IMG/VR virus record: IMGVR_UViG_3300034358_000044
Span: 124,001 to 188,000 of that record
Direction: 5' to 3' (one strand)
From: a virus
Length of the DNA: 64,000 bases
This document shows, in pieces, positions 2 through 57,961 of the stretch. The notes below the pieces were generated by a model that was given only the letters and a program-made list of their open reading frames with translations, had not been told where the DNA came from and searched no databases. The first letter of the stretch is position 1; every line of letters starts with the position of its first letter. Position numbers and translations under genes: made by a program.

Positions 2-1372
2 GTTCTCGACACCATCCCTGACGTCTTCGTGGAGGCGATGAGGAGGAACAAGTTCATCTCCTTCGCCTCAGAGAACATCTTCGTGATGAAGAGGCCCATC
101 ATCAGCCAGAAGGACAACGGCTGGGGCATGCCACTCATCTTCCCAGTGCTGAAGGACGCCTTCTACCTGCAGATTCTTCGCAAGGCGCAAGAGTCCATCG
201 CCCAGGAGCACATCGTTCCTCTGCGGGTGCTCTTCCCCCAGGCAGGTTCTGCGAGCTCGGATCCGTACACCACCGTCTCCCTCGACTCCTGGAAGTCGCG
301 CATGGAGGGGGAGATTGCCAAGTGGAAGTACGACAACAACTACATCCCCATCCTACCGCTCCCCATCGGGAACGAGACCATCGGTGGGGATGGTAAGGCG
401 CTCGGTCTCTACCAGGAGATGGACGTCTGGTCGAAGCAGATTGTCGTGGGTATGGGCGTGCCTCAGGAGTTCGTCTTCGGAGGGATGACCTACTCCGGCT
501 CCAACGTCTCCATGCGAATGCTGGAGAACATGTTCATCGGGTACCGCACCGACCACGAGAACATGCTGAACCAGTTCGTCATCAAGCGCATCGCCAACTT
601 CATGGAGTGGACTCCCGTGAAGGCGCACATGCGTCGCTTCAAGATGGCTGATGACCTGCAGCGCTCCACCCTCTACTTCCAGCTCAACCAGGCGCAGAAG
701 ATTTCCGACCAGACTCTCCTCAACGAGGTGGACCAGGATCCACTGGTCGAGGACGAGCGGAAGAAGTTGGAGCTCTCGAAGCAGCTTGAGTACCAGCGGA
801 AGATGCAGCTCTCCCAGGCCAACACCCAGGCCGAGGTCGCTGCCATCCAGATGAAGGCTCAGATGGCCGCCCAGCAGCAACAGGCAGCCGCCATGGGCCA
901 GCAGCCGGGTCAGCCGCAACCCGGAGCACAGCCTGGGGGCCAGCCCGGGGCGGACCCCAATGCCGCAGCCGGCGGTGCCCCCCAGACGGGCCAGCAGGGC
1001 GAAATGGTGCCCGGCCAGCAGGTGGACCCTGCCATGCCCCAGGGAAGCACCGTGTCGCAGGAGAACGCCCAGCAGGCCCCTCAGGACGGCATTCCCCAGG
1101 AGGCTCAGAGCCCCCTCACTATGGGTCTCAAGGGCGGTGGTATGAATCTCCTGTACCTGGCCAAGCGTGCCGCCAATGCGCTCAAGGACCAGGACAAGAT
1201 GACCCAGATGATGGAGCTCAACCGGATGAAGGCCACCAATCCGCAGCTCTACATGCTGGTCATCCAGATCATCAACAGCAAGCAGGGCTCACAAGAGAAC
1301 CCCATGGACGCCTCTCAGTCCCCCTTGCCCGAGCAGAAGCCTTCGCGTAGAGCAGCATCAGTTGGTGTGTGA
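2..1372 (+). CDS. Portal protein, C-terminal part (5' truncated by window)
   Basis: The reading frame is open from the window edge, so the true start lies upstream; 456 residues are visible. The first half has portal-like features: a region reading MGVPQEFVFGG and then TYSGSNVSMRMLEN, resembling the wing/crown part of large-phage portals that select a conformer and bind the neighbouring subunit. A coiled-coil segment follows (KKLELSKQLEYQRKMQLSQ), then a low-complexity tail rich in Gln, Pro, Gly and Ala (about residues 275-365). Portals form the dodecameric ring at the head vertex through which DNA is packaged and ejected. The position at the head of the virion gene block agrees. The assignment rests on motif resemblance and context, not on an alignment. 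Confidence 0.75.
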   Translation, partial: VLDTIPDVFVEAMRRNKFISFASENIFVMKRPIISQKDNGWGMPLIFPVLKDAFYLQILRKAQESIAQEHIVPLRVLFPQAGSASSDPYTTVSLDSWKSRMEGEIAKWKYDNNYIPILPLPIGNETIGGDGKALGLYQEMDVWSKQIVVGMGVPQEFVFGGMTYSGSNVSMRMLENMFIGYRTDHENMLNQFVIKRIANFMEWTPVKAHMRRFKMADDLQRSTLYFQLNQAQKISDQTLLNEVDQDPLVEDERKKLELSKQLEYQRKMQLSQANTQAEVAAIQMKAQMAAQQQQAAAMGQQPGQPQPGAQPGGQPGADPNAAAGGAPQTGQQGEMVPGQQVDPAMPQGSTVSQENAQQAPQDGIPQEAQSPLTMGLKGGGMNLLYLAKRAANALKDQDKMTQMMELNRMKATNPQLYMLVIQIINSKQGSQENPMDASQSPLPEQKPSRRAASVGV

Positions 1373-1447
1373 GCTCGCGTAACTCAAGGGTAGAGTGCTC
1401 TCGGTACTAGGCCGAAAGAAGTGCGGGTTCGAATCCCGTCGCGGGTG
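1373..1447 (+). tRNA. tRNA-like element, apparent CUA (amber) anticodon, atypical
   Basis: It starts directly after the portal stop codon. The acceptor stem GCTCGCG pairs with CGCGGGT (two G-U pairs). The D arm is ACTC-AAGGGTA-GAGT. The T arm GCGGG-TTCGAAT-CCCGT has the canonical TTCGAAT loop. The anticodon stem CTCGG/CCGAA has one C-A mismatch and a loop TACTAGG. Standard numbering gives anticodon CTA, but position 33 is A instead of the near-universal U. CCA is not encoded. It could be a suppressor tRNA, a decaying tRNA or a tRNA-like processing element; many genes here end in TAG, which argues against strong suppression. Confidence 0.55.
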
Positions 1448-1526
1448 CTTGACACGAAGTTCTGAAGGGCTAGGTTCTTCCCCATGATCGACAGCGCCCT
1501 AGTCTGAAGCTGAGCTGACGCACTAC

Positions 1527-4220: not shown

Positions 4221-7200
4221 ATGGCTGACACCCAGACGCCTGAGCATTCTTTTGAAGTTCTGAAGACGAATACGCTCAAGGCGATTCAGTCCTACTTTCC
4301 CTACGAAGGTCGCAAGCAGCGTCTCGTAGTCGAGAACCTTCGAGTTGATGACCACCTCTCCTCGGACGACATCGGCAGTCAGTCGGACGCCAAGGACAAA
4401 GAAGGTACTTGGGGCTGCCCCATCAAGGCGGACGTCAAGCTCATCGATGTTGCAACCGGCAAGGTCATCGACACCAAGAAGGGCACAACCCTCGCTCGCC
4501 TTCCCAAGCTCACCAACAGGTACGGCTACATCGTCGGTGGGAACGAGTACCAAGTCGATCACCTCTTCCGGCTGAAGTCCGGGGCCTACACTCGCGTTCA
4601 GGACAATGGTGACCTGGAGACCGAGTACAACATGAAGAAGGGTATCAACGGTCGCGGCTTCTCCGTGAAGCTCGACAGGTTGAAGAAGACCTTCGATCTC
4701 AAGTTGGAGAACACTCACGTCCCATTGTACCCGGTTCTCAAGTCGATGGGAGTGTCAGACGACCAGCTTCAGGAGCAGTGGGGCAAGGAGATCTTCGAGG
4801 CCAACAAGCCGAAGAACGATGCTCGCTTCCACTCTGCCCTCAAGAAGTTCTGGGACAAGACGAGCGAGGAGGGTGCTGCGGCTCCTACAGATTCGGCGGC
4901 TCTGGCGCAGCACGTCATCAACATCTTCGACCAGACTGCCATCCACCCAGACTCGACCAAGATCACTCTGGGGCAGTCCTTCCACAAGGTTGACGGGCAA
5001 GCCCTGGCCTTGGGAGCCATGAAGGTGTTGGGTGTTTCACGTGGAACACTCAAGCCCGATGACCGAGACAGCCTGGCCTTCAAGGAGGTTGCCTCCATAG
5101 AGGACTTCATCCCGGAGAAGATTGAGCGCAACGCCAAGTCCATCAAGGGACGTCTGCGCTCCATGGTGGAGAACAAGAAGACCATCAGCGAGATTCTCTC
5201 TCCTGACCTCTTCAACAAACCCATCAGGGAGTTTTTCTCCAAGGGTGGTGGAGTCTGCGAACGCTCGGACCAGACGAACCCGCTCCAGATGCTGTCCGCC
5301 AACAGGAAGACGACTCTGATGGCAAAGGACTTCGGCGGTATCAAGAGCGACCAGACCCTCACCCCTGAGATGAAGGTGGTCAACGCGAGTCACTTCGGCT
5401 TCTTGGATCCGATGCACACTCCAGAGTCGGAGAAGACCGGCATCACTCTTCACCTGGCCGCCAATGTGCGCAAGGTGGGAAAGGACTTGGAGGCTCCGGT
5501 CTTCAACACGCATACAGGCAAGGAGGAGTACCTCAAGGTTGCTGACTTCCACAGCGCCATGGCCGTCCTGCCTGACCAGGTGAAGTGGGTTGGTGGAAAG
5601 CCTGTCCCTATCTCCCACGATGTGAAGGTGAAGCTCCCCAATGGGGAAATCGCTGTGCGTCCCTACAAGGATGCTCAGTACGTCATGCCCTCCTCAAAGG
5701 GTCTCTTCAACTACGCCTCGAACATGGTCCCGTTCCTGCCATGCAACAACGGCAACCGTGTGTCGATGGCGGACAAGCAGATGGAACAGGCCATCGGTCT
5801 GAAGCACCGCGAAGAGCCTCTGGTGCAGACTAAGACCGACTCGCTCGACCCCGAACACACCTTCGAGAAGCTGGTGGGTCACTTCACAACGGCTCGGTCT
5901 CCAGTCGAAGGAAAGGTCATCTCCATCAAGGATGGGATGATTCACGTCCAAGGGAAGGACGGCAAGACGGAGGTTCACCTCTACAACCACTTCCCCACCA
6001 ACGATCCCAAGGGAATGCTGCACTCTACTCCACTCGTGCAGGTTGGGGATGCAGTGAAGAAGGGGCAGGTTCTCGCTGACTCGAACTACACGAAGAATGG
6101 GACGCTCGCCACTGGCACCAATCTTCGAGTCGGCTACGTCCCCTACAAGGGCTACAATTTCGAAGACGGCATCGTCATCTCGGAGTCTGCCGCGAAGAAG
6201 CTCACCAGTGAGCACCTCTACAAGAAGAACGTAGAGATTGACCCGGACTCGGACCACATCTCCAAGGACAAGTTCCGCGCCTACTCCCCAGTCAAGGCTT
6301 CCGCGATGACCAAGGAGCAGTGGGACAGCATCGACGACGACGGAGTCATCAAGCCAGGGACCCGGGTCCTCCCTGGGCAAATCATGGTGGCGGCCATCGG
6401 TAAGAACGTGGCTACCAAGCTGACCCACTCATGGGGAGCTCTCGGGAAGCGCGCCATCAAGCCCTACAAGGACAAGAGCTTGGTCTGGGACGAGGACCAT
6501 GTCGGCGTTGTGACGAAGGTCGTGAAGGAGTCGGGTGGGCGTGGGGTGAAGGTCTACGTGAAGACCGAGGAGTCTGCACTCATCGGTGACAAGATGTCGG
6601 GGCGCCACGGCAACAAGGGTATCATCACCCAGATTCTGCCTGACCACGAGATGCCTTTCACCACGGATGAGAAAGGGGAACGTCAACCTCTCCAGGTCCT
6701 CCTCAATCCGTCAGGTGTTCCTACCCGCATGAACGTAGGGCAGCTACTAGAGACGGCAGCAGCGAAGATTGCCGAGAAGACAGGTAAGCCCTACATCGTC
6801 AACAACTTCGCAGGCCCAGGTCACGACTACCGTCAGCAGGTGCTGGATGACTTGAAGAAGCACGGCCTCAAGGACGAAGAACACGTCTTCGATCCCAATG
6901 ACCCGAAGCGGTCCATCGGGTCGGTGTTGGTCGGGCATCAGTACATGTTGAAGATGGTGCAGCAGGTCGAGAAGAAGCTCACTGCGCGCGGTGGTGGGAC
7001 CGACGTGCAGGGGAAGGCACTGGCCTACGACTCCGACATGCAGCCCACCAAGGGCGGTGAGCGTGGTGGTCAGGGCTTCGGGCAGTTGGAGATGTACTCC
7101 CTGCTTGGCCATGATGCGCGCCACAACATCCGCGAGATGGCGACCTACAAGTCGGACATGCAGGATGCCAACTTCTGGTCGATGGTGCAGAACGGGAAAG

Positions 7201-10200
7201 AGCCACCACCCCCAGTGCCGTCGTTCGCCTACAACAAGTTCGTGGCCATGCTGCGTGGAGCTGGACTCAACGTCACCAAGGAAGGCACTGGAGTCCGCCT
7301 TGTTCCGATGACGAACAAGGAGATTCTCCACCAGGCAGGGAATGGTCACAACCAGATCAGCGATGCCTCCAAGACGCTGCTCTCGAAGAACTTGAAGCCT
7401 GTGCCAGGGGGGCTCTTCGACCCCTACCTCACTGGTGGTATCGGTGGTGACAAGTGGTCCTACATGAAGCTGTCGGAGCCAGTTCCAAATCCGATGTTCT
7501 GTGGGGAGAATGTGAAGCCGGGTCCAGTGCCTGTGCTTCTCGGACTGAAGATTCAAGAGCTCGATGAGGTGATGCACGGCAAGCGCACCATCGACGGGAA
7601 GACTGGTGGGCATGCTGTCGAGGCCGCCCTCAAGAAGGTGGACGTCGATAAGGAGATCACGAAGCTTCGGACGGACCTTCCTTCCCTCAAGGGTTCGACC
7701 CTGGATCGGAGCAACAAGAAGTTGAAGTACCTCCTTGCCCTCAAGGACCAAGGCCTCAAGCCGCACGAGGCCTACATGATGCACAACATCCCCATCCTCC
7801 CGCCGAAGTTCCGCCCTGCAACGGCGACCCCTTCTGGTGATGTTAGCTACGCCCCCATCAACGGTCTCTACAAGAACATCTCCCTCATCAACGATGAGCT
7901 GAAGAACTTCGACAGCAAGACGTATTCGGAGGAGCACAAGGAGCCGTTGCGGTTGCAGCTCTGGGACTCCGTGAAGGCTCTTCAAGCGGTGGGCAATTAC
8001 AAGCCGGTCTATGACATGGACCAGAAGGGAGCTCGTGCGCTCCCAGGTATTCTCGACATCATCGGCCATGGAGGCATTGAGGGGCAGCCAAAGGAGGGCT
8101 ACTTCCAGAGCAAGCTGGTGAAGCGCAAGCTCGATCTCTCCATGCGCTCGACCATCGTGCCCGAGCCCAACCTCCACATCGACGAGATGGGGGTTCCCAA
8201 GGGAGCGGCGATGGAGTCCTACAAGCCGTTCGTTGTGGCGCAGCTCCATCGATGGGGGCAGACCGCCTTGGCTGCTCAGGACGAAATCAAGAGGGACACT
8301 CCGCTGGCCACCAAGGCACTGGAGAAGGTCTTCGAGGACCGCCCCATCCTCATCAAGAGAGATCCGGCTCTCCACAAGTTCTCGGTCATGGGGTTCAGGC
8401 CTAAGCTGGTAAGTGGCAAGGCCATTCAGATCCACCCTTTGGTGTGCGGTGGGTTCAACGCCGACTTCGATGGTGACACCATGGCCGCTACCATTCCCCT
8501 CTCCAAGGCGGCCGTGGAGGAGGCCAAGAAGATGTTCCCGTCCAAGAACCTCTTCAACCCAGGAAGTGGAAGGGTGATGTACGTCCTGGACCAGGAACAA
8601 ATTCTTGGTCTCCACTATATGACTCAATGGGGGAAGCAGACCGACAAGAAGTTTGGAACGATCGATGAGGTGAAGAAGGCACTCTCGAAGCACGAGATCG
8701 AGCCCACCGACATCATCTCCCTCAAGGATGCCCAGAAGCCGACCACTGCCGGTCGCTTGATGTTCGCAGCGACTCTTCCTTCCGGCTTCTCGGAGAACAA
8801 GGACATCCTGCACAACCCCAAGCTGGACATCACCAAGAAGTTCCTGGCTGACAACATCGCCACCAATCTGGCGAAGAACCACGTCAACCACTACGCCACT
8901 GCCATCGATGGGTTGAAGGATCTGGGTAACGAGTGGTCCTACAAGCTTGGAGTCTCTTTCGGCTTGAAGGACTTCGCCGTTCTTCCTGAGCGGGATGCCA
9001 TCCTCAAGGACGCTACCAAGGATGCGGCACACGCGACCAAGACGTTGAAACCGGGGACGGAGCTCGACAAGAGGCTCATCGAAATCTACTCCAAGGCAAC
9101 GGACAAGATTGACGCTGCAGCCAAGTCCAGCCTTGGTCGAAGTGACAACCGACTTGGACGGATGGTCTTCACCGGAGCTCGTGGAAAGTCGGAACAGCTC
9201 CGCCAGATGATTGCTGCACCGATGTTGGTGCAGGATGGTCTCAATAGGACTCTCACGACTCCAGTGATGAGGTCCTTCTCGGAGGGACTGGACCTGGGTG
9301 AGTACTGGTTGACGCAGAGCGGGGCTCGTAAGGGCACTCTTCAGCGTTCATCGGGTACTAGAGATCCGGGTGCGGCCTCCAAGGAGATTCTCAACTCGAC
9401 GATGTCCACCCTCATCACTTCCAATGACTGCAAGACGACGCAGGGCATCTTGCTGGACGTGAGTCACCCCGACATCCATGACAGGTTCCTAGCAGCCCCC
9501 TACAAGCTGAAGGACGGGGTGACCGTGAGAGAGGGGACACTCCTCACTCCTGAAATCACCGGCAAGCTGCGTGATCAGAAAGTCCTGGTGCGTTCCCCGC
9601 TCAAGTGTCAACACGGAGACGGCATCTGTGCCAAGTGTTTCGGCCTGAACGAGCGTGGGGTTCCACACGATGTTGGAACCAGTATCGGTGTTCTCGCTGG
9701 TCAGTCATTGGGAGAACGTGCGACCCAGCTTTCCATGAACGCCTTCCACACAGGAGGAGTCGCTTCTGGTGCCGGTTCTGAATCAGTGGACATGTTCACA
9801 CGACTCAAGCAAATCCTGGGCATGCCGAAGAAGCTGAAGAACCAAGCTACCATCTCTCAATCCTCTGGGAAAATTACCCAAGTCTCCAAGGATGCCGCAG
9901 GCGGAGTGAACATCACCATCAATGGAATTGGCCACAAGGTAGATACTGCCCTTGTGAACCCGAAGATGGTAGTAGGTACTGAGGTGAGGAAGGGGGAGGC
10001 TCTCTCTGGAGGACACATCAACCCTCTCCATCTTCTCAGCGTCACCAAGGATATTCATGCGGTCCAGAACTACATGACCAACGAACTTGATACCCTCTAC
10101 AACAAGGAAGGTGTCCGCCGACGCAACGTGGAAGTCGTCGTCCGTGCGCTCACCAACCTCACCAAGGTGAAGGACCCAGGCCACAGCGACTTCATTCATG

Positions 10201-10493
10201 GAGATGTTGCTCCCCGCTCGGTGGTTGAAGAGTACAACCGGACGCTCTCCAAGGGGCACAGGCCCATCGAGCACGAGCCCATTCTGAAGGGCATCACGGA
10301 GATACCGTCTCAGTCTTCCAACTGGCTGGGCCGGCTCAACTTCCAGGAGCTCCATTCCACGGTGCAGCAGGCGGCGGCCATGGGATTGAAGTCGGACCTT
10401 CACGGGAGCCACCCCATCCCCGGTATGGCCAGAGGGAGTGAGTTCGGTCTTCCACCTCCTGAGTTGAAGGCCAAGAAGCCCTACGTCTACTAG
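4221..10493 (+). CDS. Single-chain RNA polymerase: fused beta and beta' subunits
   Basis: A 2090-residue protein joins bacterial-type beta and beta'. Beta signatures: GYNFEDGIVISES (about residue 643), DKMSGRHGNKG (about 790), RMNVGQLLETAA, and GQGFGQLEMYSLLGHDARH. Beta' follows directly: WSYMKLSEPVPNPMF (about 1085), a switch-2-like SMRSTIVPEP, the catalytic NADFDGD loop (about 1412), a second zinc site (Cys in SNDCK and in KCQHGDGICAKC) and the trigger loop SLGERATQLS/AFHTGG (about 1829-1847). The beta' N-terminal zinc finger (CxCGK...CxxCG) is missing between GGLFDPYLTGG and the W-S-Y-M-K segment. It lies among virion genes, so it may be a virion-packaged or late polymerase. No alpha, omega or sigma gene is seen here. 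Confidence 0.95.
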   Translation: MADTQTPEHSFEVLKTNTLKAIQSYFPYEGRKQRLVVENLRVDDHLSSDDIGSQSDAKDKEGTWGCPIKADVKLIDVATGKVIDTKKGTTLARLPKLTNRYGYIVGGNEYQVDHLFRLKSGAYTRVQDNGDLETEYNMKKGINGRGFSVKLDRLKKTFDLKLENTHVPLYPVLKSMGVSDDQLQEQWGKEIFEANKPKNDARFHSALKKFWDKTSEEGAAAPTDSAALAQHVINIFDQTAIHPDSTKITLGQSFHKVDGQALALGAMKVLGVSRGTLKPDDRDSLAFKEVASIEDFIPEKIERNAKSIKGRLRSMVENKKTISEILSPDLFNKPIREFFSKGGGVCERSDQTNPLQMLSANRKTTLMAKDFGGIKSDQTLTPEMKVVNASHFGFLDPMHTPESEKTGITLHLAANVRKVGKDLEAPVFNTHTGKEEYLKVADFHSAMAVLPDQVKWVGGKPVPISHDVKVKLPNGEIAVRPYKDAQYVMPSSKGLFNYASNMVPFLPCNNGNRVSMADKQMEQAIGLKHREEPLVQTKTDSLDPEHTFEKLVGHFTTARSPVEGKVISIKDGMIHVQGKDGKTEVHLYNHFPTNDPKGMLHSTPLVQVGDAVKKGQVLADSNYTKNGTLATGTNLRVGYVPYKGYNFEDGIVISESAAKKLTSEHLYKKNVEIDPDSDHISKDKFRAYSPVKASAMTKEQWDSIDDDGVIKPGTRVLPGQIMVAAIGKNVATKLTHSWGALGKRAIKPYKDKSLVWDEDHVGVVTKVVKESGGRGVKVYVKTEESALIGDKMSGRHGNKGIITQILPDHEMPFTTDEKGERQPLQVLLNPSGVPTRMNVGQLLETAAAKIAEKTGKPYIVNNFAGPGHDYRQQVLDDLKKHGLKDEEHVFDPNDPKRSIGSVLVGHQYMLKMVQQVEKKLTARGGGTDVQGKALAYDSDMQPTKGGERGGQGFGQLEMYSLLGHDARHNIREMATYKSDMQDANFWSMVQNGKEPPPPVPSFAYNKFVAMLRGAGLNVTKEGTGVRLVPMTNKEILHQAGNGHNQISDASKTLLSKNLKPVPGGLFDPYLTGGIGGDKWSYMKLSEPVPNPMFCGENVKPGPVPVLLGLKIQELDEVMHGKRTIDGKTGGHAVEAALKKVDVDKEITKLRTDLPSLKGSTLDRSNKKLKYLLALKDQGLKPHEAYMMHNIPILPPKFRPATATPSGDVSYAPINGLYKNISLINDELKNFDSKTYSEEHKEPLRLQLWDSVKALQAVGNYKPVYDMDQKGARALPGILDIIGHGGIEGQPKEGYFQSKLVKRKLDLSMRSTIVPEPNLHIDEMGVPKGAAMESYKPFVVAQLHRWGQTALAAQDEIKRDTPLATKALEKVFEDRPILIKRDPALHKFSVMGFRPKLVSGKAIQIHPLVCGGFNADFDGDTMAATIPLSKAAVEEAKKMFPSKNLFNPGSGRVMYVLDQEQILGLHYMTQWGKQTDKKFGTIDEVKKALSKHEIEPTDIISLKDAQKPTTAGRLMFAATLPSGFSENKDILHNPKLDITKKFLADNIATNLAKNHVNHYATAIDGLKDLGNEWSYKLGVSFGLKDFAVLPERDAILKDATKDAAHATKTLKPGTELDKRLIEIYSKATDKIDAAAKSSLGRSDNRLGRMVFTGARGKSEQLRQMIAAPMLVQDGLNRTLTTPVMRSFSEGLDLGEYWLTQSGARKGTLQRSSGTRDPGAASKEILNSTMSTLITSNDCKTTQGILLDVSHPDIHDRFLAAPYKLKDGVTVREGTLLTPEITGKLRDQKVLVRSPLKCQHGDGICAKCFGLNERGVPHDVGTSIGVLAGQSLGERATQLSMNAFHTGGVASGAGSESVDMFTRLKQILGMPKKLKNQATISQSSGKITQVSKDAAGGVNITINGIGHKVDTALVNPKMVVGTEVRKGEALSGGHINPLHLLSVTKDIHAVQNYMTNELDTLYNKEGVRRRNVEVVVRALTNLTKVKDPGHSDFIHGDVAPRSVVEEYNRTLSKGHRPIEHEPILKGITEIPSQSSNWLGRLNFQELHSTVQQAAAMGLKSDLHGSHPIPGMARGSEFGLPPPELKAKKPYVY

Positions 10494-17847: not shown

Positions 17848-18159
17848 TCACGGTGATTCGTTCTGCTCGTTTCCCATCTTGCGTTTCACGATGACTTGTA
17901 CGACGAGGGAGGTAGGTTTGATGGAGACCGCATTTCCCGGTACACAGTTGTTCTTGGTGAGCCACTTCTGGAAGATGTTCCATATCTCAAGAGCCACTTT
18001 CCCGTTGACTTTCTCTGGCCAGTAGAGCTTCAGCCCGTAAACGAGTGGGTTGACAGTGCCCACGACTTCATAGACCATCTCTTGGTCCAGGGCGCCTCCT
18101 GTTGACTCGCAGAATGCAGGAACCCACGCCAGAGGCGGTGGCACTCTTGAGGGCTTCAT
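17848..18159 (-). CDS. Unknown protein, start codon overlapping divergent terminase start
   Basis: The 103-residue product starts MKPSRVPPPLAWVPAF. It has a central aromatic part (VYGLKLYWPEK) and a helix (IWNIFQKWLTKN), and ends in a basic tail. Its ATG (18159-18157) and the terminase ATG (18158-18160) lie on opposite strands in the same CATG. GGAG sits upstream on the minus strand. It leads the unit with RNase HII. No family is recognised. Confidence 0.55.
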   Translation of the reverse strand: MKPSRVPPPLAWVPAFCESTGGALDQEMVYEVVGTVNPLVYGLKLYWPEKVNGKVALEIWNIFQKWLTKNNCVPGNAVSIKPTSLVVQVIVKRKMGNEQNESP

Positions 18160-19951
18160 GACAGTAGTCTCCAGTGAAGAGTACAAGAGACTCGACAACG
18201 ACGTCGTCATCTCTGAGAGCGGGCAGCCAGAGCCGAAGGAAGAATGGGACTACGAGCCAGTAGTTGAGGTGGACCCGGATGAGCTGGAACTGCAGAAAGG
18301 CAGCGAGCTCGTCTACATCTCTCCCTCCCGCTTTGTCGAGTTCGCCATCACGGTTCCCGACAAGGTGCTGCAGAAGCGAGTGCCCTTCTCCTTCGAGAAC
18401 CGCCGCTACCTCCGTCATCCCTACGACACCGCCTCCAAGCGCGTCCTCCTGAAGTGTGGTCGGCAGGTCGAGAAGAGCACGATGTTGGGGAACAAGTGCC
18501 TCTCGTACTGCGCCATCTACTCTGCCTTCAACGTCCTCTACGTTTCCCCCACCAACCTTCAGACGAAGACCTTCAGTCAGGACCGCTTGAAGGAGCCGGT
18601 GGAGACATCAGAACGATTGAAGGCTTGGACGACGTCGAAGCTGAGCGACAACGTCTTCTCCAAGAAGTTCGTCAACCGGAGCCAGATAACGCTCCGCTAC
18701 GCCTACCACAACGCCGACCGGGTTCGTGGCATCCCTGCTGACATGGTCCTCATTGATGAGGTCCAGGACATCATCACGGACAACCTTCCGGTCATCGAGG
18801 AGTGCGCCTCCCACTCCGAGTTCAAGCTCTTCCTGTACTCAGGGACGCCCAAGTCTCTGGACAACCCTCTGGAGAAGTACTGGACGGAGCAGTCGACCCA
18901 GAACGAGTGGGTGGTGCCCTGTGAGCACCACGGCCTCCCCAAGGATCCCAGCACCTGGTTCTGGAACATCCTCAGCGAAGAGAACATGGGCAAGGAAGGT
19001 CTCATCTGTTCTCGCTGTGGGAAGCCCATCTACTCGATGCACCCACACTCCCAGTGGGTGTCGATGAACCCGAACGTCTACACCCGACTGAAGCAGCCCT
19101 TTGAGGGCTACCGGGTACCGCAGCTCATGGTGCCTTGGCTTGACTGGCACGAGCTCCTCGACAAGCGTACCAAGCAGTCCCAGACGGTCTTCTTCAACGA
19201 GGTGTTGGGGCTCTCCTACGACTCCGGTACTCGCCCCCTCACTCGGCAGGACGTCGTCGATAACTGCCAGCCTGGGCTCTTGATGACGGAGTCCAACCTC
19301 ACCGACATCAAGCGACACATGGGTACGGCTTCTCCCATCTTCGCCGGCATCGACTGGGGTACTGGTGAGAATACGTACACCGTCCTCACCCTGGGCGGCT
19401 ACATCAACGAGTACTTCACCATCTTCTACATTCACCGTTTCGAGGGGCCTGAGATGGAGCCAGAGGTGCAGCTCGACCTCATCGAGACCATCATCAAGAA
19501 CTGGAACGTCAAGGTGGTGGGGACAGACTACGGCGGCGGCTTTGATCGCAACGATCGTCTCCAGCGGAAGTTCGGAAGGGACCGAATCTGGAAGTACCAG
19601 TACTCGACCCCTTCCCAGAAGGTGAAGTGGGAGGACAAGTTCCACCGTTTCATCGTCCACCGCACCGAGGTGATGTCGGACATCTTCAACGCCATCAAGC
19701 GGAGGAACGTCTTCCGCTTCCCTGACTGGCAGCAATTCGAGGACCCCTTCTCCAAGGACCTCCTCAACATCTTCTCGGAGTACAACGAGCAGGCCCGGCA
19801 GATTCAGTACAAGAAGTCGCCTGACGTGACGGACGACTCCTTCCACTCCATCCTGCTCTGCTTCCTTGTCTCGATGCTGCGCCACCCCAGGCACGATGTT
19901 CTGAACCCTCAGGCGCGCACGTCTGCTGGTGCAATGGACATTGAGGACTAA
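18158..19951 (+). CDS. terL: Terminase large subunit
   Basis: A 597-residue packaging ATPase-nuclease. The ATPase domain has a non-canonical Walker A, LKCGRQVEKST (about residue 100), a Walker B with catalytic acid, MVLIDEVQD (about 196-204), and a coupling segment FLYSGTP. A Cys pair (CSRCGKP) with an upstream CEHHG forms a probable zinc loop in the linker. The nuclease domain begins at AGIDWGTGENTYTV (about 395), and DYGGG and a late Asp pair (VTDDSFH) are candidate metal ligands. It docks on the portal and drives DNA into the prohead. No small terminase is recognised next to it. Confidence 0.9.
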   Translation: MTVVSSEEYKRLDNDVVISESGQPEPKEEWDYEPVVEVDPDELELQKGSELVYISPSRFVEFAITVPDKVLQKRVPFSFENRRYLRHPYDTASKRVLLKCGRQVEKSTMLGNKCLSYCAIYSAFNVLYVSPTNLQTKTFSQDRLKEPVETSERLKAWTTSKLSDNVFSKKFVNRSQITLRYAYHNADRVRGIPADMVLIDEVQDIITDNLPVIEECASHSEFKLFLYSGTPKSLDNPLEKYWTEQSTQNEWVVPCEHHGLPKDPSTWFWNILSEENMGKEGLICSRCGKPIYSMHPHSQWVSMNPNVYTRLKQPFEGYRVPQLMVPWLDWHELLDKRTKQSQTVFFNEVLGLSYDSGTRPLTRQDVVDNCQPGLLMTESNLTDIKRHMGTASPIFAGIDWGTGENTYTVLTLGGYINEYFTIFYIHRFEGPEMEPEVQLDLIETIIKNWNVKVVGTDYGGGFDRNDRLQRKFGRDRIWKYQYSTPSQKVKWEDKFHRFIVHRTEVMSDIFNAIKRRNVFRFPDWQQFEDPFSKDLLNIFSEYNEQARQIQYKKSPDVTDDSFHSILLCFLVSMLRHPRHDVLNPQARTSAGAMDIED

Positions 19952-28443: not shown

Positions 28444-29565
28444 ATGAGCACCGTTCCCGCAAAGGTTCTGAACGATCTCTTCTTCGAAAAGATCGGATCT
28501 GCAGAGGGCAAGGACAAGATCGCCGAGTTCGGCGGTACGTACATCCGTGACCGTCTGCGTGAAGTCTCGTTCGCCAGGAAGATCATCCCGCCCACCCCGG
28601 TGCAGCGCAGCGAGCTGCAGCGTTCGGTGAACCACGACACCCTGGTGAAGATCGTCGACATCGAGCCCGACTCGAAGGCGATGAGCCTCACCTTCCGTGG
28701 CCAGCCCACGGCCCGGTTCATTCGTGCGCCGCGCTTCGAGATCCCCTTCTTCACCATCTCCTCGGAGAAGTTCGAGAAGACGGAGCAGGAGCTCCTGGCG
28801 TACGAGATGCCCATCACCAAGATCATCGAGGAGAACTCGGTCAAGGACATCCAGGCGATCGAGGACCGGCAGTTCCTCATCTACGTCGAGGCCTGCATCC
28901 AGGCGTACCAGCTCGACAGCAACAACGGAGTCGCGACCTCCTTCAACAGGACCCGCGTCCTGGCCGGTACGGTCGTCAGCTCCTCCGTGGTCAAGAGCGA
29001 GGGTGCTCTGGCTGCGTCGGCCGACAACTTCATCGTCCACCCCCTGCTGAAGCCCGACTTCATCAAGCTCAAGCAGGTCATGCACCGTCGCTTCCTGCGT
29101 GCTGAGCGCATCCTCATCACCGAGCCCGACTACGACAACCTCTCGGCCTGGACCATCCAGGACGTGTGGAGCATCGCTGCCGAGACGGCGACCGAGGGCT
29201 GGAAGGCCAACACGGTGGTCGGCCTCAAGATCATCCGCACCATCAAGACGAACATCCTCCGCGAGGGCAACATCTACTGCTTCGCGGCTCCCGAGTTCTT
29301 CGGCCGGTTCTACATCCTGAACCAGACGAAGTTCTACATCGACAAGATCGCCAACCTCATCACCTGGCAGTCGTGGGAGGACATCGGGATGGGCTTCGGC
29401 AACATCGCCGCCGTGGTCAAGCTGGAGCTCTACTCCGGCTCGGTCACCCCGGGTGCCACCGACACCGGCTTCTGGGCCGAGCTGCCCAAGGACGAGGACG
29501 ACCTGTCGCCCATCAACAACAGGGCCGACAAGGGCCTGACCACTCCGGAAGTCGACCAGTTCTGA
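28444..29565 (+). CDS. Major capsid protein, HK97-like
   Basis: The 373-residue product starts MSTVPAKVLNDLFFEKIGSA. It has an N-arm/E-loop-like region (RFEIPFFTISSEKFEKTEQE), a spine helix region, then LLKPDFIKLKQVMHRRF and ILITEPDYDNL, matching the P-domain/A-domain style of HK97-fold capsids. It ends in an acidic tail. A perfect rho-independent terminator follows, consistent with very high expression. Gene order (protease, scaffold-like, decoration, capsid, neck) fits. No long N-terminal pro-domain is obvious, so the scaffold function is likely in trans. Confidence 0.85.
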   Translation: MSTVPAKVLNDLFFEKIGSAEGKDKIAEFGGTYIRDRLREVSFARKIIPPTPVQRSELQRSVNHDTLVKIVDIEPDSKAMSLTFRGQPTARFIRAPRFEIPFFTISSEKFEKTEQELLAYEMPITKIIEENSVKDIQAIEDRQFLIYVEACIQAYQLDSNNGVATSFNRTRVLAGTVVSSSVVKSEGALAASADNFIVHPLLKPDFIKLKQVMHRRFLRAERILITEPDYDNLSAWTIQDVWSIAAETATEGWKANTVVGLKIIRTIKTNILREGNIYCFAAPEFFGRFYILNQTKFYIDKIANLITWQSWEDIGMGFGNIAAVVKLELYSGSVTPGATDTGFWAELPKDEDDLSPINNRADKGLTTPEVDQF

Positions 29566-30674: not shown

Positions 30675-31208
30675 GTGTCGGACCAGGAAGCAATGTACGA
30701 TCCGCCACGGCCACCACCTGCACCGTTGGACTCTCCTTCTGTCCCCAGAGCCCACATCGAGCTCAACAACTTCGTGAATCAGGTTCGGTCCTTCATGAGG
30801 GACTACCCTGAGCTCAACCGCCTGGTCGCTGGGGTGGAGAGCTCCAACCGGCAAATCGTTTGGGCCATCTTCGACACTCTGGACGACTTCAACTCCAGCC
30901 CGCCCTTCACGATGCACAACGTGGAGTCCTTCCCCTCCAAGAGCCTTCTCATCCGGGGCACGGTCTGCTCTCTCTTGGAGTCCATCGGTCTCCTTCAGAC
31001 GCGCAACCACCTCCAGTTCTCGGACGGCGGCATCACCGTAGGGGTGAGCGACAAGACCCCCTTCATCCAGTCCTGGCTGCAGCTCTTCCGCAACTCCTAC
31101 GAGGCGAAGAAGGAGAAGCTGAAGGTGGCCTACAACATCGAGACGGCCTGGGGTGGTGGAGTCTTCTCGGAGTACCGATTCGTGAACAACTTCTACGGGG
31201 AGTGGTGA
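30675..31208 (+). CDS. Probable neck / head-completion protein
   Basis: The 177-residue product begins at GTG. After a Pro-rich start it has a helical/beta domain: ELNNFVNQVRSFMRDYPELN, then IVWAIFDTLDDFNSSPPF, SLLIRGTVCSLLESIGLL and FSDGGITVG. The location between capsid and tail genes and the size are typical for head-tail connectors; this is context-based. The stop overlaps the next start (TGATG). Confidence 0.6.
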   Translation: MSDQEAMYDPPRPPPAPLDSPSVPRAHIELNNFVNQVRSFMRDYPELNRLVAGVESSNRQIVWAIFDTLDDFNSSPPFTMHNVESFPSKSLLIRGTVCSLLESIGLLQTRNHLQFSDGGITVGVSDKTPFIQSWLQLFRNSYEAKKEKLKVAYNIETAWGGGVFSEYRFVNNFYGEW

Positions 31209-31699
31209 TGCATCCCTACATGTTCAAGGGTTTCGAAGATGAGCTTCAGAAGATCGCCATCTCAGAAGAGTGGGCGAGAGAGCACTCTCGAAGAGGGATG
31301 GCAAACCGCTTGAGGCTGGAGGAAGCGACTCTCACTGGAACTGGGGCTCGTAGAAGTCGTGCTGTAAAGGGAGGCCATGAACTGACGAGTAAGGGAAACG
31401 ACAGGGCCCTCGATCTCCAAGGACGGCTCGCGAGCCGAAAAGATTCCATTTCCTCCAGAACCCAGAAGAACCTGGATGCTTCGTGGGCAGGAGTGACGGA
31501 TGCTTTCAAGGACACGAAAGACTTGAAGAAGTCTATTTCAAAGTCTCGCGCCGAGAAGGTCAAGAGCATTCGAAACCTCAACACCGTCAAGAAGGTGGGC
31601 AAGGGTGTTGCCGGTGTCGGAGTTCTTGCTGCTGGTGCCTACGGAGCCAAGAAGATGTACGACCGGCAGAGGACCAAGATCCCTGCTAAAAGCGAGTGA
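31208..31699 (+). CDS. Tagged putative internal virion protein with C-terminal membrane-like cassette
   Basis: The ATG overlaps the preceding TGA. The 163-residue product starts MHPYMFKGFEDELQKIAISE, an exact F-x-D-E-L-x-K-I-A tag. A basic helical middle (KKSISKSRAEKVKSIRNLN) precedes GVAGVGVLAAGAYGAKKMYD, nearly the same hydrophobic cassette as in the scaffold-like gene at 24.8 kb, and a basic end. The design suggests a packaged, membrane-interacting protein. No enzymatic motif. Confidence 0.6.
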   Translation: MHPYMFKGFEDELQKIAISEEWAREHSRRGMANRLRLEEATLTGTGARRSRAVKGGHELTSKGNDRALDLQGRLASRKDSISSRTQKNLDASWAGVTDAFKDTKDLKKSISKSRAEKVKSIRNLNTVKKVGKGVAGVGVLAAGAYGAKKMYDRQRTKIPAKSE

Positions 31700-31703
31700 G
31701 CCA

Positions 31704-33950
31704 ATGCACGTCGCCACGCTCACTGCCTTCGAGGACGAGCTTGAGAAAGAGGCAGATGTCATCACGCCCCTCAAGGCGCATCAGCAGAGGGTCGTCGATC
31801 GCATTCAGCAGGAGGACCAGCCCGGTCTTGTGGTGGCCCACGGACTGGGTTCTGGCAAGACGCTGACGTCCATTGCCGCCCAAGACGCATTGGGGATGCA
31901 TGCGGACGTCGTTGTTCCTGCCGCCCTACAGGCGAACTACAAGAAGGAAATCAAGCAGCACACCAAGGGCAAGGTTCCCAAGGCGGCCATTCAGTCGATG
32001 CAGAACGTGGCCACCAAGAAGACGCAGTTGAAGCGCCCGATGATGGTAGTGGACGAGGCCCACCGCATGAGGGATCCGTCCTCCAACACCTTCCAGACGC
32101 TGAAGGGGACGGAAGCCAAGAAGCGACTACTCCTCACTGGGAGCCCATTCTACAATCACCCTTCGGACATCGCCCCACTCATCGACCTGGCCGCCAATGC
32201 CAAGGTGCTACCATTCGACAAGGATGAGTTCACTCGGGCCTATATTGCCGAGAAGACCATCAACCCCAGTTTCGGGCAGAGTCTGGCCAACATCTTTCGT
32301 TCTGATGAGAATAAGGTGAGGCCCGGTTTCGTGCCCATTCTCTACGAGAAGAAGGCTCCTGAACTACGAGCCGCCTTCAAGAAGTGGGTCGACTACCATC
32401 CAGGCAGCAAGGATGCAGAGGGCTTCCCGGATGTCGAGAAGAGGGACGTCCCCATCGAGATGACGAAGGAACAGCTTCGCGTCTACGATACCCTCATGGA
32501 CAGGGCGCCCGCTTGGGTCGCCGCCAAGGTGAAGCGCGGATTGCCTCCCAGCAAGCAAGAGGCCTCGCAGCTCAACGCCTTCCTCACGGCTTCTCGGCAG
32601 GCCACCAACACCACCGCCCCCTTCCAGCAGGACCAGAAGAACATCCAGGACCCGAAGATTCAAGCCGCCTTCTCCAGCCTCAAGAAGACCCTGGAGGGCA
32701 ACCCGCGAGCTCGGGCAGTGGTGTATTCCAACTTCCTGGATGCAGGCATCAATCCCTACAAAGCCAAGCTGGACGAAGCCAAGATTCCCTACGGGGAGTT
32801 CACTGGGGCCATGTCCAAGAAGAAGAGGGAGGAGATAGTCCAGCAGTACAACGCAGGTAAGCTGCGAACGCTTCTCCTCTCCAGTGCAGGTGGGGAAGGT
32901 TTGGACTTGAAGGGCACCAGACTGATGCAGATTCTGGAACCTCACTGGAACGAAGAGAAGCTGAAGCAGGTCCATGGGCGTGGGGCTCGCTACATGAGCC
33001 ACTCCGATCTACCTCCTGAAGAGCGAAAGCTCCTCATCGAGAACTACATCGCCAAGCGCCCCCAGGGACTGCCGACGTCGGTCTACAACAAGATCACGGG
33101 TCGAGCCCCGGACAAGTCAGTGGATGAGTACTTGACCCAGATGTCCGGCGACAAGGAGAAGCTCATCGAACAGTTCCGTGCGCTCCTCCCGAATGGGAAA
33201 GAGAAGAAGTCTGCTGCCGAGAAGAAGAAGGAACTCTTCGTCACCGACGAGAACACTCAGCGAGGCAAGACCACTGAGGTATCCAGAGAGCTTGCCAAGT
33301 CCCTGAAGCCGAGGGCGGCAGCCTTTGCTACCTTCACTGCCCCATTGGCTCTCACCGGGTTTCGTCTCGCTCGGGGGCTAGGGCCGAACATGAGTACGAA
33401 GTCACAGGCCCTTGCTGGAGGTGTTGGGGCGGCTCTCGGTGGTGCTCTGGGACACTTCATTGCCCATAATCAGACCGCCAACATCATCAACGACAGCAAG
33501 GCCATTGCCCGTCAAGCTCTTCGAACCGCCTCCAAAGAGAACAGCCTTCGAGAGGAAGCTGGGAAGATGAACTGGGGTGATGTTGCGCGTTCCTCCAGGA
33601 ATCGCGTCATCAGTGATGTGGCCACCTCCGCTCCAGTACTCACTCGACTAGCGACCCAGCACATCCAGGGAAAGGGGCTTAAATTCCCCACGACGGACCT
33701 GGGGCTCATGGCGGCTGGAAACATCCTAGGCTCCATCGGATCCGGCTACCTAGAGAAGTACAAGAAGATGATTGCCGTGAATGAGCTCGACAACGTCAAA
33801 GCTCGTATGGCGGAGCAGGACGCTACGCGCCTCAAGAGACTTCGTAACCAGGTAGCCCAGCTGGAGACTCGGGTCGAGGGGGACGGATGGAACGCCCCCA
33901 AGAAGGACGACGCTCCAGTTGAGAAGAAGAAGGGCAAGCTGGACTGGTAG
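31704..33950 (+). CDS. SNF2-like superfamily 2 helicase with N-terminal virion tag
   Basis: A 748-residue product. Residues 1-17 are MHVATLTAFEDELEKEA, a tag variant with Glu for Ile. Helicase motifs follow: I, HGLGSGKT (46-53); II, VVDEAH (115-120); III, LLLTGSP (142-148); then the second RecA domain with VVYSNF, LLLSSAGGEGLDL (motif V) and QVHGRGARY (motif VI, about 420). Residues 520-650 add a Gly/Ala-rich cassette (ALAGGVGAALGGALGHFIAH) absent from normal helicases, and a C-terminal coiled coil. It would translocate on duplex DNA or remodel DNA-bound proteins. Its tag and location suggest packaging in the virion. Confidence 0.85.
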   Translation: MHVATLTAFEDELEKEADVITPLKAHQQRVVDRIQQEDQPGLVVAHGLGSGKTLTSIAAQDALGMHADVVVPAALQANYKKEIKQHTKGKVPKAAIQSMQNVATKKTQLKRPMMVVDEAHRMRDPSSNTFQTLKGTEAKKRLLLTGSPFYNHPSDIAPLIDLAANAKVLPFDKDEFTRAYIAEKTINPSFGQSLANIFRSDENKVRPGFVPILYEKKAPELRAAFKKWVDYHPGSKDAEGFPDVEKRDVPIEMTKEQLRVYDTLMDRAPAWVAAKVKRGLPPSKQEASQLNAFLTASRQATNTTAPFQQDQKNIQDPKIQAAFSSLKKTLEGNPRARAVVYSNFLDAGINPYKAKLDEAKIPYGEFTGAMSKKKREEIVQQYNAGKLRTLLLSSAGGEGLDLKGTRLMQILEPHWNEEKLKQVHGRGARYMSHSDLPPEERKLLIENYIAKRPQGLPTSVYNKITGRAPDKSVDEYLTQMSGDKEKLIEQFRALLPNGKEKKSAAEKKKELFVTDENTQRGKTTEVSRELAKSLKPRAAAFATFTAPLALTGFRLARGLGPNMSTKSQALAGGVGAALGGALGHFIAHNQTANIINDSKAIARQALRTASKENSLREEAGKMNWGDVARSSRNRVISDVATSAPVLTRLATQHIQGKGLKFPTTDLGLMAAGNILGSIGSGYLEKYKKMIAVNELDNVKARMAEQDATRLKRLRNQVAQLETRVEGDGWNAPKKDDAPVEKKKGKLDW

Positions 33951-33988: not shown

Positions 33989-34828
33989 ATGCATCTCCGC
34001 ACCCTTACGGCTTTCGATGACGAGCTCGTGAAGATCGCCGTCTCGGAGAGGGAGAACTCTCAGACCCTTCGTGACCAGAAACGCTTGGATCTTTTTCATA
34101 AGACACTGGCGGTAGGTGGCTCAGCATATGGGGCTCATGCTCTTGGTGTCGGGGCCAACCGTGCTCTGGTTGGCTCGTTGATTAGAGGGGAGCAAGGTCT
34201 CTCTACGTCCCCACAGCATATTCTCGACCTTCACCATCAGATTCACCCAGAGGGTATGGTTGTTCCTGTGGAAGGGGGTCTTGATTTCGCCAAACACATC
34301 TACCACGGGACTCCGACTGCTGGGATACCTCGGGGAGCTGTAGAAGAGATAAACGGGCCCGGCGGAGTGCATCTTCCGAAGACGACGAGAGGGGTGAGTA
34401 TAGCTCCTACTCAGGTAGGGCCTCACATAACTGCACATGAACTCGGACACGGAAGGTTTTCACAGGGAAAGCTGGGAAGGGCTGCCATAGGGGCTAAGAG
34501 ATTTCTTGGCACGCATCAAACAGCTGTAGGGCGTGCAAGCGCAATAGGTTCGTATGGAATGGCTCTTCAAGACCCTGACAGCGCGGCTTCAAAGTTGGCT
34601 CCGGTAGTCGGCGGCCTTCGACACCTCCCAACTCTTGTTGACGAGGCTGGCGCCACATTCCATGGACTACGAGGAATGAAGGCTCTCGGGATGAAGGGTG
34701 GGAAGGCTTCCCTAGCCAAGGCATTCGGTACGTACGCGGCGGCGGCTGCCCCTTCCGTACTGGGTCCCGCTGGTGTTCGTCAGTTCATGAAGTACAAGAA
34801 GAACAAGGCCAAGGAGAGCGCTCCGTGA
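33989..34828 (+). CDS. Putative zinc metalloprotease with N-terminal virion tag
   Basis: The 279-residue product starts MHLRTLTAFDDELVKIAVSE, the exact tag. A Gly/Ala segment follows (AVGGSAYGAHALGVGANRAL). The centre has ITAHELGHGRF, an HExxH zinc site (His150, Glu151, His154); Asp218 or Glu219 in LVDEAGATFHG is a candidate third ligand (gluzincin-like). The C-terminus has another hydrophobic Ala-rich stretch and a Lys-rich end. It could process virion or host proteins on infection. Family membership beyond HExxH is not clear. Confidence 0.65.
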   Translation: MHLRTLTAFDDELVKIAVSERENSQTLRDQKRLDLFHKTLAVGGSAYGAHALGVGANRALVGSLIRGEQGLSTSPQHILDLHHQIHPEGMVVPVEGGLDFAKHIYHGTPTAGIPRGAVEEINGPGGVHLPKTTRGVSIAPTQVGPHITAHELGHGRFSQGKLGRAAIGAKRFLGTHQTAVGRASAIGSYGMALQDPDSAASKLAPVVGGLRHLPTLVDEAGATFHGLRGMKALGMKGGKASLAKAFGTYAAAAAPSVLGPAGVRQFMKYKKNKAKESAP

Positions 34829-35412
34829 GTCCTGTCAGTCTCGCAGCTTTTCAAGATGAGCTGATGAAGATCGCCTCTGTCAGTGAGACTCTCAAGGGTC
34901 TCGCCAAGAACCCCGCTGTGGGTGGGGCTGTATTGGGTGGTGGTCTCGGGGCCGGAACCAACATCCGAAAAGAGATGGCGACCCGGCACGGGGAGGACTA
35001 CCACCCTGACCAGGAGCTGGTGGCGAAGAACCGAAAGAAGCGCATCGGTCGCATGGCTGCCAGCACTGCGGCCTCTGCCGGCACCGGAGCCCTTCTAGGG
35101 CACTTCGGAGGGAAAGGTGTTCGGGCTCTCAAGAACACCGCCAAGAATGCCATCAAGAATGTTGGCGATGAGGTCAAGGGAGTGGTCTCTCACACTGGGG
35201 GAGAGATCAAGGGTACTACCTCCCATATCGCTGATGACGTGAAGACCACGTCTTCACACCTGACTGACAGGGCCAAGGACGTAGGGGACGTCATCAAGGA
35301 CGTCAACACCGGAGTGGGTCGCAGACTCCTGGCGCGTCCCAAGGAGAAGGGTCCCTCCGTCTTTGAGCGAATCAAGAGTGTCTGGAACGGAAAGAAGAAG
35401 GAAACCACATGA
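34825..35412 (+). CDS. Tagged putative internal virion protein, Gly-rich
   Basis: The 195-residue product begins at the GTG in GTGA overlapping the protease stop. The N-terminus MSPVSLAAFQDELMKIASVS holds the exact tag. Two Gly-rich stretches follow (VGGAVLGGGLGAG; ASTAASAGTGALLGHFGGKG), then an amphipathic repetitive region with 11-residue-like periods (VKGVVSHTGGEIKGTTSHI) and a basic tail. Such repeats form membrane- or DNA-binding helices in other proteins. Function unknown. Confidence 0.6.
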   Translation: MSPVSLAAFQDELMKIASVSETLKGLAKNPAVGGAVLGGGLGAGTNIRKEMATRHGEDYHPDQELVAKNRKKRIGRMAASTAASAGTGALLGHFGGKGVRALKNTAKNAIKNVGDEVKGVVSHTGGEIKGTTSHIADDVKTTSSHLTDRAKDVGDVIKDVNTGVGRRLLARPKEKGPSVFERIKSVWNGKKKETT

Positions 35413-57556: not shown

Positions 57557-57559
57557 ACG

Positions 57560-57952: not shown

Positions 57953-57961
57953 GGGAGCCAC

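What the first reader, a model, noticed from the sequence alone, without database searches (positions are those of the whole stretch)
4221..10493. Complete beta and beta' RNA polymerase fused in one phage polypeptide, lacking the beta' N-terminal zinc finger
Both catalytic subunits with near-bacterial signatures lie in one 2090-residue chain: the beta GRHGNKG loop, beta' NADFDGD and trigger loop, and the second zinc site. Jumbo phages such as phiKZ split these subunits into several genes, whereas natural fusions are known in Helicobacter and Wolbachia. The junction passes from G-L-F-D-P-Y straight to the W-S-Y-M-K-L-S-E-P-V-P segment, deleting the usual Cys-rich zinc-binding domain. The gene sits beside the portal and spike, hinting at a virion or late polymerase.
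Basis: partly seen in the sequence, partly recalled or inferred. Interest (0 to 1): 0.85.

Follow-up and report, generated by a model that had tools for sequence, protein, structure and literature searches.

The report
Phage's one-piece bacterial-type RNA polymerase
This virus of bacteria carries a complete copy of the cell's RNA-making machine, with its two big subunits welded into one 2,090-residue protein that has lost one of its two zinc knobs; relatives show that it belongs to a large, little-described phage group that probably carries the machine inside the particle together with its own start-site-recognition (sigma) protein.

Summary
Window 4221-10493 encodes one 2090-residue chain with complete bacterial-type beta and beta' subunits. 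The active-site residues and the second zinc site are intact. The beta' N-terminal zinc-binding domain (ZBD) is cleanly excised at a linker-less junction. Predicted structures match whole bacterial beta and beta' (Z about 35).

It is not a one-off. About 25 other contigs hold the full fusion, and relatives, including cultured Salmonella phage Arash and Vibrio phage D69, have beta plus the beta' N-terminus fused and the rest of beta' separate. Both halves give the same tree: one phage clade outside all sampled bacteria and unrelated to bacterial rpoBC fusions, which keep the ZBD. All 32 phage enzymes tested lack it. The split forms are a derived subclade, so fusion came first and re-splitting later.

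Function: the portal gene lies just upstream in 72 of 78 loci. A divergent sigma factor, outside the window, is conserved in 15 of 17 relatives. No alpha subunit was found, and there is only one polymerase. In published Arash virion proteomics the polymerase is the most-detected protein, with sigma present at a similar per-residue level. Best reading: a virion-packaged holoenzyme. Packaging in this phage, activity and alpha-independence are inferred.

The parts
4221..10493 (+). single-chain beta-beta' RNA polymerase, 2090 aa
4221..7280 (+). beta part (about residues 1-1020)
   Evidence: AlphaFold2 model of residues 1-1110: mean pLDDT 86.7; best PDB match is bacterial beta, Z 35.6, 860 residues, rmsd 3.6
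7281..10490 (+). beta' part (about residues 1021-2090)
   Evidence: AlphaFold2 model of residues 1000-2090: mean pLDDT 83.3; bacterial beta' aligned from model residue 21-23 (= P0001 1020-1022) to the end, Z about 35, about 1010 residues
7266..7490 (+). linker-less junction with excised beta' zinc-binding domain (residues 1016-1090)
   Evidence: alignments
6600..6620 (+). beta catalytic loop GRHGNKG (residues 794-800; K799 here and K791 just before it are the catalytic lysines)
8457..8477 (+). beta' NADFDGD, Mg-binding aspartates (residues 1413-1419)
9297..9368 (+). bridge helix region (residues 1693-1716, GARKG)
   Evidence: alignment; coordinates by alignment to E. coli
9429..9638 (+). second beta' zinc site C1737, C1796, C1803, C1806
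   Evidence: 32 of 32 phage and 12 of 12 bacterial sequences keep all four Cys
9696..9776 (+). trigger loop region (AFHTGG, H1843)
29..1372 (+). portal protein, C-terminal part (gene starts left of the window, about record 123330)
   Evidence: PHROG portal 4e-4; Arash portal 3e-40
1373..1448 (+). tRNA-Tyr(GTA), abutting the portal stop codon
10494..11585 (+). baseplate/spike-like protein, directly downstream
   Evidence: PHROG baseplate assembly 4e-4 (weak); downstream in nearly all full-fusion loci
18158..19951 (+). terminase large subunit
   Evidence: PHROG 1e-64, Pfam GpA_ATPase 1e-12
28444..29565 (+). major head protein
   Evidence: PHROG 4e-10; Arash MCP 1e-37
31605..33950 (+). SNF2-type helicase, orthologue of Arash virion protein Gp217; optional partner
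   Evidence: found in 6 of 16 relatives

Best explanation
It is an active, single-polypeptide version of the bacterial RNA polymerase core (beta fused head-to-tail to beta', ZBD removed). It is expressed late with the head genes, packaged in the virion together with a phage-encoded sigma factor, and ejected with the DNA to start transcription of phage genes from phage promoters without waiting for host polymerase. As the only polymerase in the genome it would also serve later in infection. The covalent link keeps the two catalytic halves 1:1 and pre-associated, replacing at least part of the scaffold role of the missing alpha dimer. Shown here: gene, motifs, predicted folds, clade, sigma co-conservation, portal synteny, absence of a detectable alpha, a single polymerase. 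Inferred: packaging in this particular phage (from Arash), early use, alpha-independence, the role of the ZBD loss, catalytic activity.
For: Catalytic residues invariant across the clade. Full bacterial folds predicted for both halves. Conserved full-length homologues at about 36-77% identity, under strong constraint. Portal just upstream on the same strand in 72 of 78 loci with enough flank. Arash virion MS (PMC10585845): Gp206 (beta+beta'N) has the most spectra of all proteins (3516), Gp216 (beta'C) 1210, sigma Gp10 467; spectra per residue 2.31, 2.00 and 2.00, against portal 1.51 and MCP 4.34. A Gp10-type sigma is encoded in this record at 57197-58102, outside the window (E 5e-13), and in 15 of 17 relatives; the family profile matches RpoS at 2e-15. 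No alpha in 14 of 14 records. One polymerase per record.
Against: No experiment on this phage or on any full-fusion member. The Arash authors note that abundant intracellular proteins may be carried over, and 116 proteins including ribonucleotide reductase were found in those particles. Per-residue spectra are crude. Host alpha or omega could join the enzyme. No promoter motif above chance was found in intergenic DNA.
Confidence: 0.7

Rival explanations
1. A non-virion polymerase made during infection for middle/late genes; its presence in Arash particles is carry-over.
For: Arash particles contain many likely contaminants, and the authors raise this possibility. phiKZ-type phages use such an nvRNAP (PMC7598289).
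Against: Gp206 tops all 116 proteins, and beta, beta'C and sigma occur at similar per-residue levels above portal. The gene is locked next to the portal gene. There is no second polymerase to act as the virion form.
Confidence: 0.2
2. The fused chain is not self-sufficient: it recruits the host alpha dimer and omega to form a hybrid core. (Compatible with either the virion or the non-virion reading.)
For: No alpha gene in 14 records although the fold is otherwise near-bacterial. Bacterial beta and beta' need alpha to assemble (established knowledge; PMC8287921).
Against: phiKZ and AR9 enzymes work without alpha or omega (PMC8287921, PMC9209446). Fusion would lessen the need. Not tested here.
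Confidence: 0.2
3. A recently captured bacterial rpoBC fusion gene.
For: Bacterial fusions exist in several sampled lineages, and gene order beta then beta' is as in bacteria.
Against: Phage clade separate from all 36 sampled bacterial rows in the beta and beta' trees; 100/100 support in the combined careful tree. Bacterial fusions nest inside bacteria and keep the ZBD.
Confidence: 0.02
4. A structural or degenerate virion protein without polymerase activity.
For: High abundance in Arash particles.
Against: All catalytic residues, trigger-loop His and Zn2 cysteines invariant in 32 of 32; a cognate sigma is retained; inteins in relatives sit next to or near the catalytic motifs, as is usual for essential enzymes.
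Confidence: 0.03

Closest known systems
Salmonella phage Arash Gp206+Gp216 and Vibrio phages D69/D148/D181 (phage proteins annotated as beta/beta' or hypothetical)
   Same: Same clade; beta fused to the beta' N-terminus; ZBD missing; portal directly upstream; Gp10-type sigma in Arash; found in Arash virions
   Different: beta' is split after the NADFDGD barrel into a second gene; only about 33% identity; the fusion is not remarked on in the Arash paper
phiKZ/AR9-type virion and non-virion RNAPs (Chimalliviridae and relatives)
   Same: Phage-encoded multisubunit-type polymerase, no alpha or omega, a virion form exists; beta' split after DPBB-A in phiKZ/AR9, as in the Arash-type forms
   Different: Four or five genes per enzyme, two enzymes per phage, sigma-like subunit recognised only by structure; here one gene, one enzyme and a sigma recognisable by sequence profile
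mReC multi-subunit RNAP-encoding Caudovirales (Weinheimer and Aylward 2020, PMC7481178)
   Same: Phage clade of recognisable beta and beta' branching apart from bacteria
   Different: The paper describes beta and beta' subunits and mentions fusion only for crAssphage.
crAss-like gp66 and YonO/P23-45 single-chain two-barrel RNAPs
   Same: Single chain with both double-psi barrels; virion enzymes among them
   Different: Those are highly divergent from cellular subunits (PMC7481178, PMC10770324); the present chain matches whole bacterial beta and beta'
Natural bacterial rpoBC fusions (Helicobacter, Wolbachia; here L042, L047, L048, L050, L061, L106, L110)
   Same: beta fused to beta' in the same order
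   Different: Keep the beta' ZBD; nest within bacteria; about 2,230-2,800 aa

Membership tests
Cellular-type two-barrel (multisubunit) RNA polymerase | beta' DxDxD Mg site and beta catalytic lysines in two double-psi barrels | tested here: met
   D1415/D1417/D1419, K791/K799 invariant in 32 of 32 phage sequences; Pfam Rpb2_6, Rpb1_2
Cellular-type two-barrel (multisubunit) RNA polymerase | full beta and beta' fold | tested here: met
   Z about 35 to bacterial beta and beta', about 850-1020 residues aligned in the top rows
Bacterial beta' subunit | N-terminal zinc-binding domain (C70-C88 in E. coli) | tested here: not met
   Deleted in the window protein and in 32 of 32 clade members; present in all bacteria sampled
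Bacterial rpoBC fusion gene | branches within bacteria | tested here: not met
phiKZ/AR9-type phage RNAP | beta and beta' split over four or more genes, two enzymes per phage | tested here: not met
   One gene, one polymerase in the record
mReC lineage (PMC7481178) | RNAP falls in the published mReC clade | not testable with these tools
   mReC sequences are in supplements that were not readable; Carin-5 and GN1 used as unfused phage stand-ins only
mReC lineage (PMC7481178) | TerL of Pfam PF03237 and MCP of PF07068 | tested here: inconclusive
   TerL: GpA_ATPase PF05876 1e-12, PF03237 only 0.0097 (below its cut-off); MCP: no Pfam hit
crAss-like/YonO single-chain RNAPs | compact divergent two-barrel chain | tested here: inconclusive
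   Not among the top 50 fold matches, which are all cellular or plastid; no direct comparison made
Virion RNA polymerase | present in the mature particle and used at the start of infection | not testable with these tools
   Relative Arash: most-detected virion protein; no data for this phage
Sigma-70 family (partner protein, record 57197-58102) | sigma regions 2-4 recognisable | tested here: met
   Family profile to RpoS 2.4e-15 across regions 2-4; the window phage's protein alone has no significant Pfam hit; Arash Gp10 Sigma70_r3 9e-9

The most novel reading that the evidence does not exclude
These phages preserve an independent, ancient lineage of cellular-type RNA polymerase that fused once, lost alpha dependence and the beta' ZBD, and works as a virion-packaged beta-beta'-sigma holoenzyme. 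Descendants re-split the chain, once at the very site after the beta' barrel used by phiKZ, AR9 and cyanobacteria, so split phage polymerases elsewhere could also descend from fused ancestors rather than from cyanobacteria or pre-cellular fragments.
Probability: 0.25. Interest if true: 0.85.

Novelty: new variant of a known kind. Interest (0 to 1): 0.7.

Why it matters
A one-gene, bacterial-type RNA polymerase core with its own sigma would be a minimal, genetically simple system for asking what alpha, omega and the beta' ZBD are for, and why most bacteria keep beta and beta' apart. The clade records fusion first and fission later, at a split site shared with phiKZ and cyanobacteria. That bears directly on the open question whether split phage polymerases are relics, cyanobacterial loans or products of intron/intein-driven gene breakage. 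It also supplies cultured relatives (Arash, Vibrio D69) in which the virion-holoenzyme model can be tested now.

Tried and rejected
Recent bacterial capture: rejected by three tree sets. ZBD loss as a consequence of fusion: rejected, because seven bacterial fusions keep it and the split phage forms lack it. Two polymerases (virion and non-virion) as in phiKZ: only one polymerase per record in the fused-form records searched. Sigma in own genome by single Pfam models: no hit, but found through the Arash virion sigma. SNF2 helicase as obligate partner: only 6 of 16 relatives. Genome-wide promoter motif in 69 upstream regions: nothing above shuffles; GGCATAAGG occurs twice in the window, with 3 of 100 shuffles reaching that. 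Sigma-70 consensus promoters upstream of the gene: 0. IMG/VR scan with the Cobetia/Yersinia phage beta' profile: no relatives. DNA-level match in cultured phages: none. Archaeal or eukaryotic outgroups were not obtained, so depth relative to the bacterial root is not addressed. Literature: no paper found that describes a fully fused bacterial-type phage beta-beta' chain, but the library is open-access only.
Full report
WHAT IS THERE. The open reading frame 4221-10493 (+) encodes 2090 residues. A stop-free run this long has probability about 1e-31 by chance, and the GC content by codon position (0.58/0.39/0.76) is that of coding DNA. Pfam finds, in order, the Rpb2 (beta) and Rpb1 (beta') domains. 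Aligned to E. coli, both beta catalytic lysines (K791, K799), all three beta' magnesium aspartates (D1415, D1417, D1419), the trigger-loop histidine (H1843) and the four cysteines of the second zinc site (C1737, C1796, C1803, C1806) are present and invariant in 32 of 32 phage relatives.

THE JUNCTION. The E. coli beta C-terminus ([21 protein letters not shown]) aligns with PSFAYNKFVAMLRGAGLNVTKE. A few residues later the beta' N-terminal motif begins (PMTNKEILHQ..., matching ASPDMIRSWSFGEV of E. coli), so there is essentially no linker. The ZBD, between E. coli GLFCARIFGP and GHIELASPTAH, is gone: GLFDPYLTGG is followed directly by IGGDKWSYMKLSEPVPN. The same excision is seen in every clade member checked, whether fully fused or split (32 of 32). 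All 35 bacterial sequences checked, including seven natural bacterial rpoBC fusions, and four other phage beta' proteins keep the C-x-C...C-x-x-C ribbon. Loss of the ZBD is therefore a clade trait, not a consequence of fusing.

STRUCTURE. AlphaFold2 with clade alignments gave confident models of residues 1-1110 (mean pLDDT 86.7) and 1000-2090 (83.3). Against the PDB, the first matches bacterial beta (Z 35.6, 860 residues, rmsd 3.6) and the second bacterial beta' (Z about 35, about 1010 residues). In the second model the match to beta' begins at model residues 21-23, that is residues 1020-1022 of the protein, which locates the junction. The top 50 matches of both models are cellular or plastid enzymes.

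RELATIVES AND ARCHITECTURES. The record is a 195,735-base IMG/VR virus. ORF analysis shows three designs. (i) beta-beta' in one chain, about 2000-2150 aa without inteins. (ii) beta+beta'N in one gene with beta'C separate, as in Salmonella phage Arash and Vibrio phage D69. (iii) beta plus the first stretch of beta' in one gene, then beta'N and beta'C as two more genes. In every design the original beta/beta' boundary stays fused; the breaks lie inside beta' (in a few cases also inside beta).

TREES. The beta tree and the beta' tree were built separately. In both, the phage clade is one group apart from all bacteria; bacterial fusions fall into two places inside bacteria (a six-member group and one proteobacterium). 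In the beta tree the most divergent member, L040, joins the phage clade with only SH-aLRT 75, while the other 31 have 100; in the beta' tree all 32 have 99. A combined careful tree gives 100/100 for the phage clade and 100/99 for the split forms as one subclade, with the fully fused L040 outside all the rest (quick version with 42 rows). Full fusion is thus the parsimonious ancestral state of the clade. One fission after the beta' barrel gave design ii, and a second gave design iii. The first fission site is the one shared by phiKZ/AR9 and cyanobacteria, which was used to suggest a cyanobacterial origin of phage polymerases (PMC7598289); here it arose independently. Breakage agents are visible: inteins in L014 (two), L182 and L193, with matching inserts in L015, and a homing-endonuclease gene interrupting beta in Vibrio phage D181.

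PARTNERS. Pfam finds no sigma in the record. But Arash Gp10, a sigma found in Arash virions, has a homologue at record 57197-58102, outside the window (E 5e-13), and 15 of 17 relatives' records carry it. The family alignment matches RpoS/SigA in the PDB at 2e-15 over regions 2 to 4. No alpha subunit was detected in 14 of 14 records, while the control search rang in 13 of 14 cellular genomes. Only one polymerase is present. An SNF2 helicase (window 31605-33950, orthologue of Arash Gp217) is present but patchy among relatives, 6 of 16.

VIRION OR NOT. The portal gene lies 0.3-3.3 kb upstream on the same strand in 72 of 78 loci with enough flank; terminase, head and baseplate genes surround it. 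In the published Arash virion proteome (PMC10585845) Gp206 (beta+beta'N) has the most spectra of all proteins (3516), Gp216 (beta'C) 1210, sigma Gp10 467, SNF2 Gp217 1148. Divided by length these are 2.31, 2.00, 2.00 and 2.43, against portal 1.51 and major capsid 4.34. This fits an equimolar packaged holoenzyme but is semi-quantitative, and those authors caution that abundant proteins may be carried over.

HOW IT MOST LIKELY WORKS. Made late beside the portal, packaged with sigma, ejected with the DNA, starting phage transcription; the same enzyme continues later. Fusion fixes 1:1 stoichiometry and helps assembly without alpha. The beta' clamp helices, the sigma dock in bacteria, appear retained as helices in the model. 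Residues of the rifampicin pocket are changed, predicting natural insensitivity. Steps shown: gene, motifs, predicted fold, clade, sigma and portal linkage. Steps inferred: activity, packaging here, timing, alpha-independence.

NOVELTY. Phage-encoded multisubunit-type polymerases, virion polymerases and bacterial fusions are each known. A complete bacterial-type beta-beta' single chain in phages, its clade-wide ZBD deletion, its conserved sigma and the fusion-then-fission history were not found described. The caveat is that the mReC set (PMC7481178) could include relatives; it mentions fusion only for crAssphage. Hence 'new variant of a known kind'.

Noticed in passing
L014:9980-18868, L015:7616-16654, L182:7998-13985, L193:7938-15737: Inteins with LAGLIDADG endonucleases in the fused polymerase of relatives; in L014 one follows NPTGVP in beta and one lies directly after NADFDGD in beta'. 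L015 carries inserts at the same two places by alignment.
   Followed up: partly
window 31605-31780, 33989-34100, 34825-34900, 36810-36920; also record 30716-32095: Several proteins share a near-N-terminal motif like [AS]F.DEL.K.A or SWADEFGRELA (SNF2 helicase, its two neighbours, others); the own-clade sigma has an N-terminal extension with a loosely similar W.L.K[IL][AS]A motif that Arash Gp10 lacks. Possible head-targeting signal.
   Followed up: partly
L042, L047, L048, L050, L061, L110 and, separately, L106: Natural bacterial rpoBC fusions in MAGs labelled Elusimicrobia, Omnitrophota and Vermiphilus plus unnamed bacteria (one group) and in proteobacterium UBA1278: two separate placements in the trees, all keeping the ZBD.
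   Followed up: partly
window 1373-1448: tRNA-Tyr(GTA) gene starts on the base after the portal stop codon.
   Followed up: no
L202:13008-16331: beta'C homologue of 1107 aa, about 500 aa longer than usual: an extra domain or intein.
   Followed up: no
L040:4983-11936 (MAG labelled uncultured Bacillus): Most divergent fully fused member, 2317 aa, with a portal-like gene 0.6 kb upstream: probably a phage contig binned into a bacterial MAG.
   Followed up: partly
window 6747-9032, minus strand: 761-codon open frame antisense to the polymerase; most likely a by-product of high third-position GC.
   Followed up: no
Salmonella phage Arash gp196 (L003:2486-3523) and Vibrio D69 VPHD69_0246: A second, different sigma-70 region 2 protein in the split-form phages, absent from the Arash virion list: possible sigma switching.
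   Followed up: no
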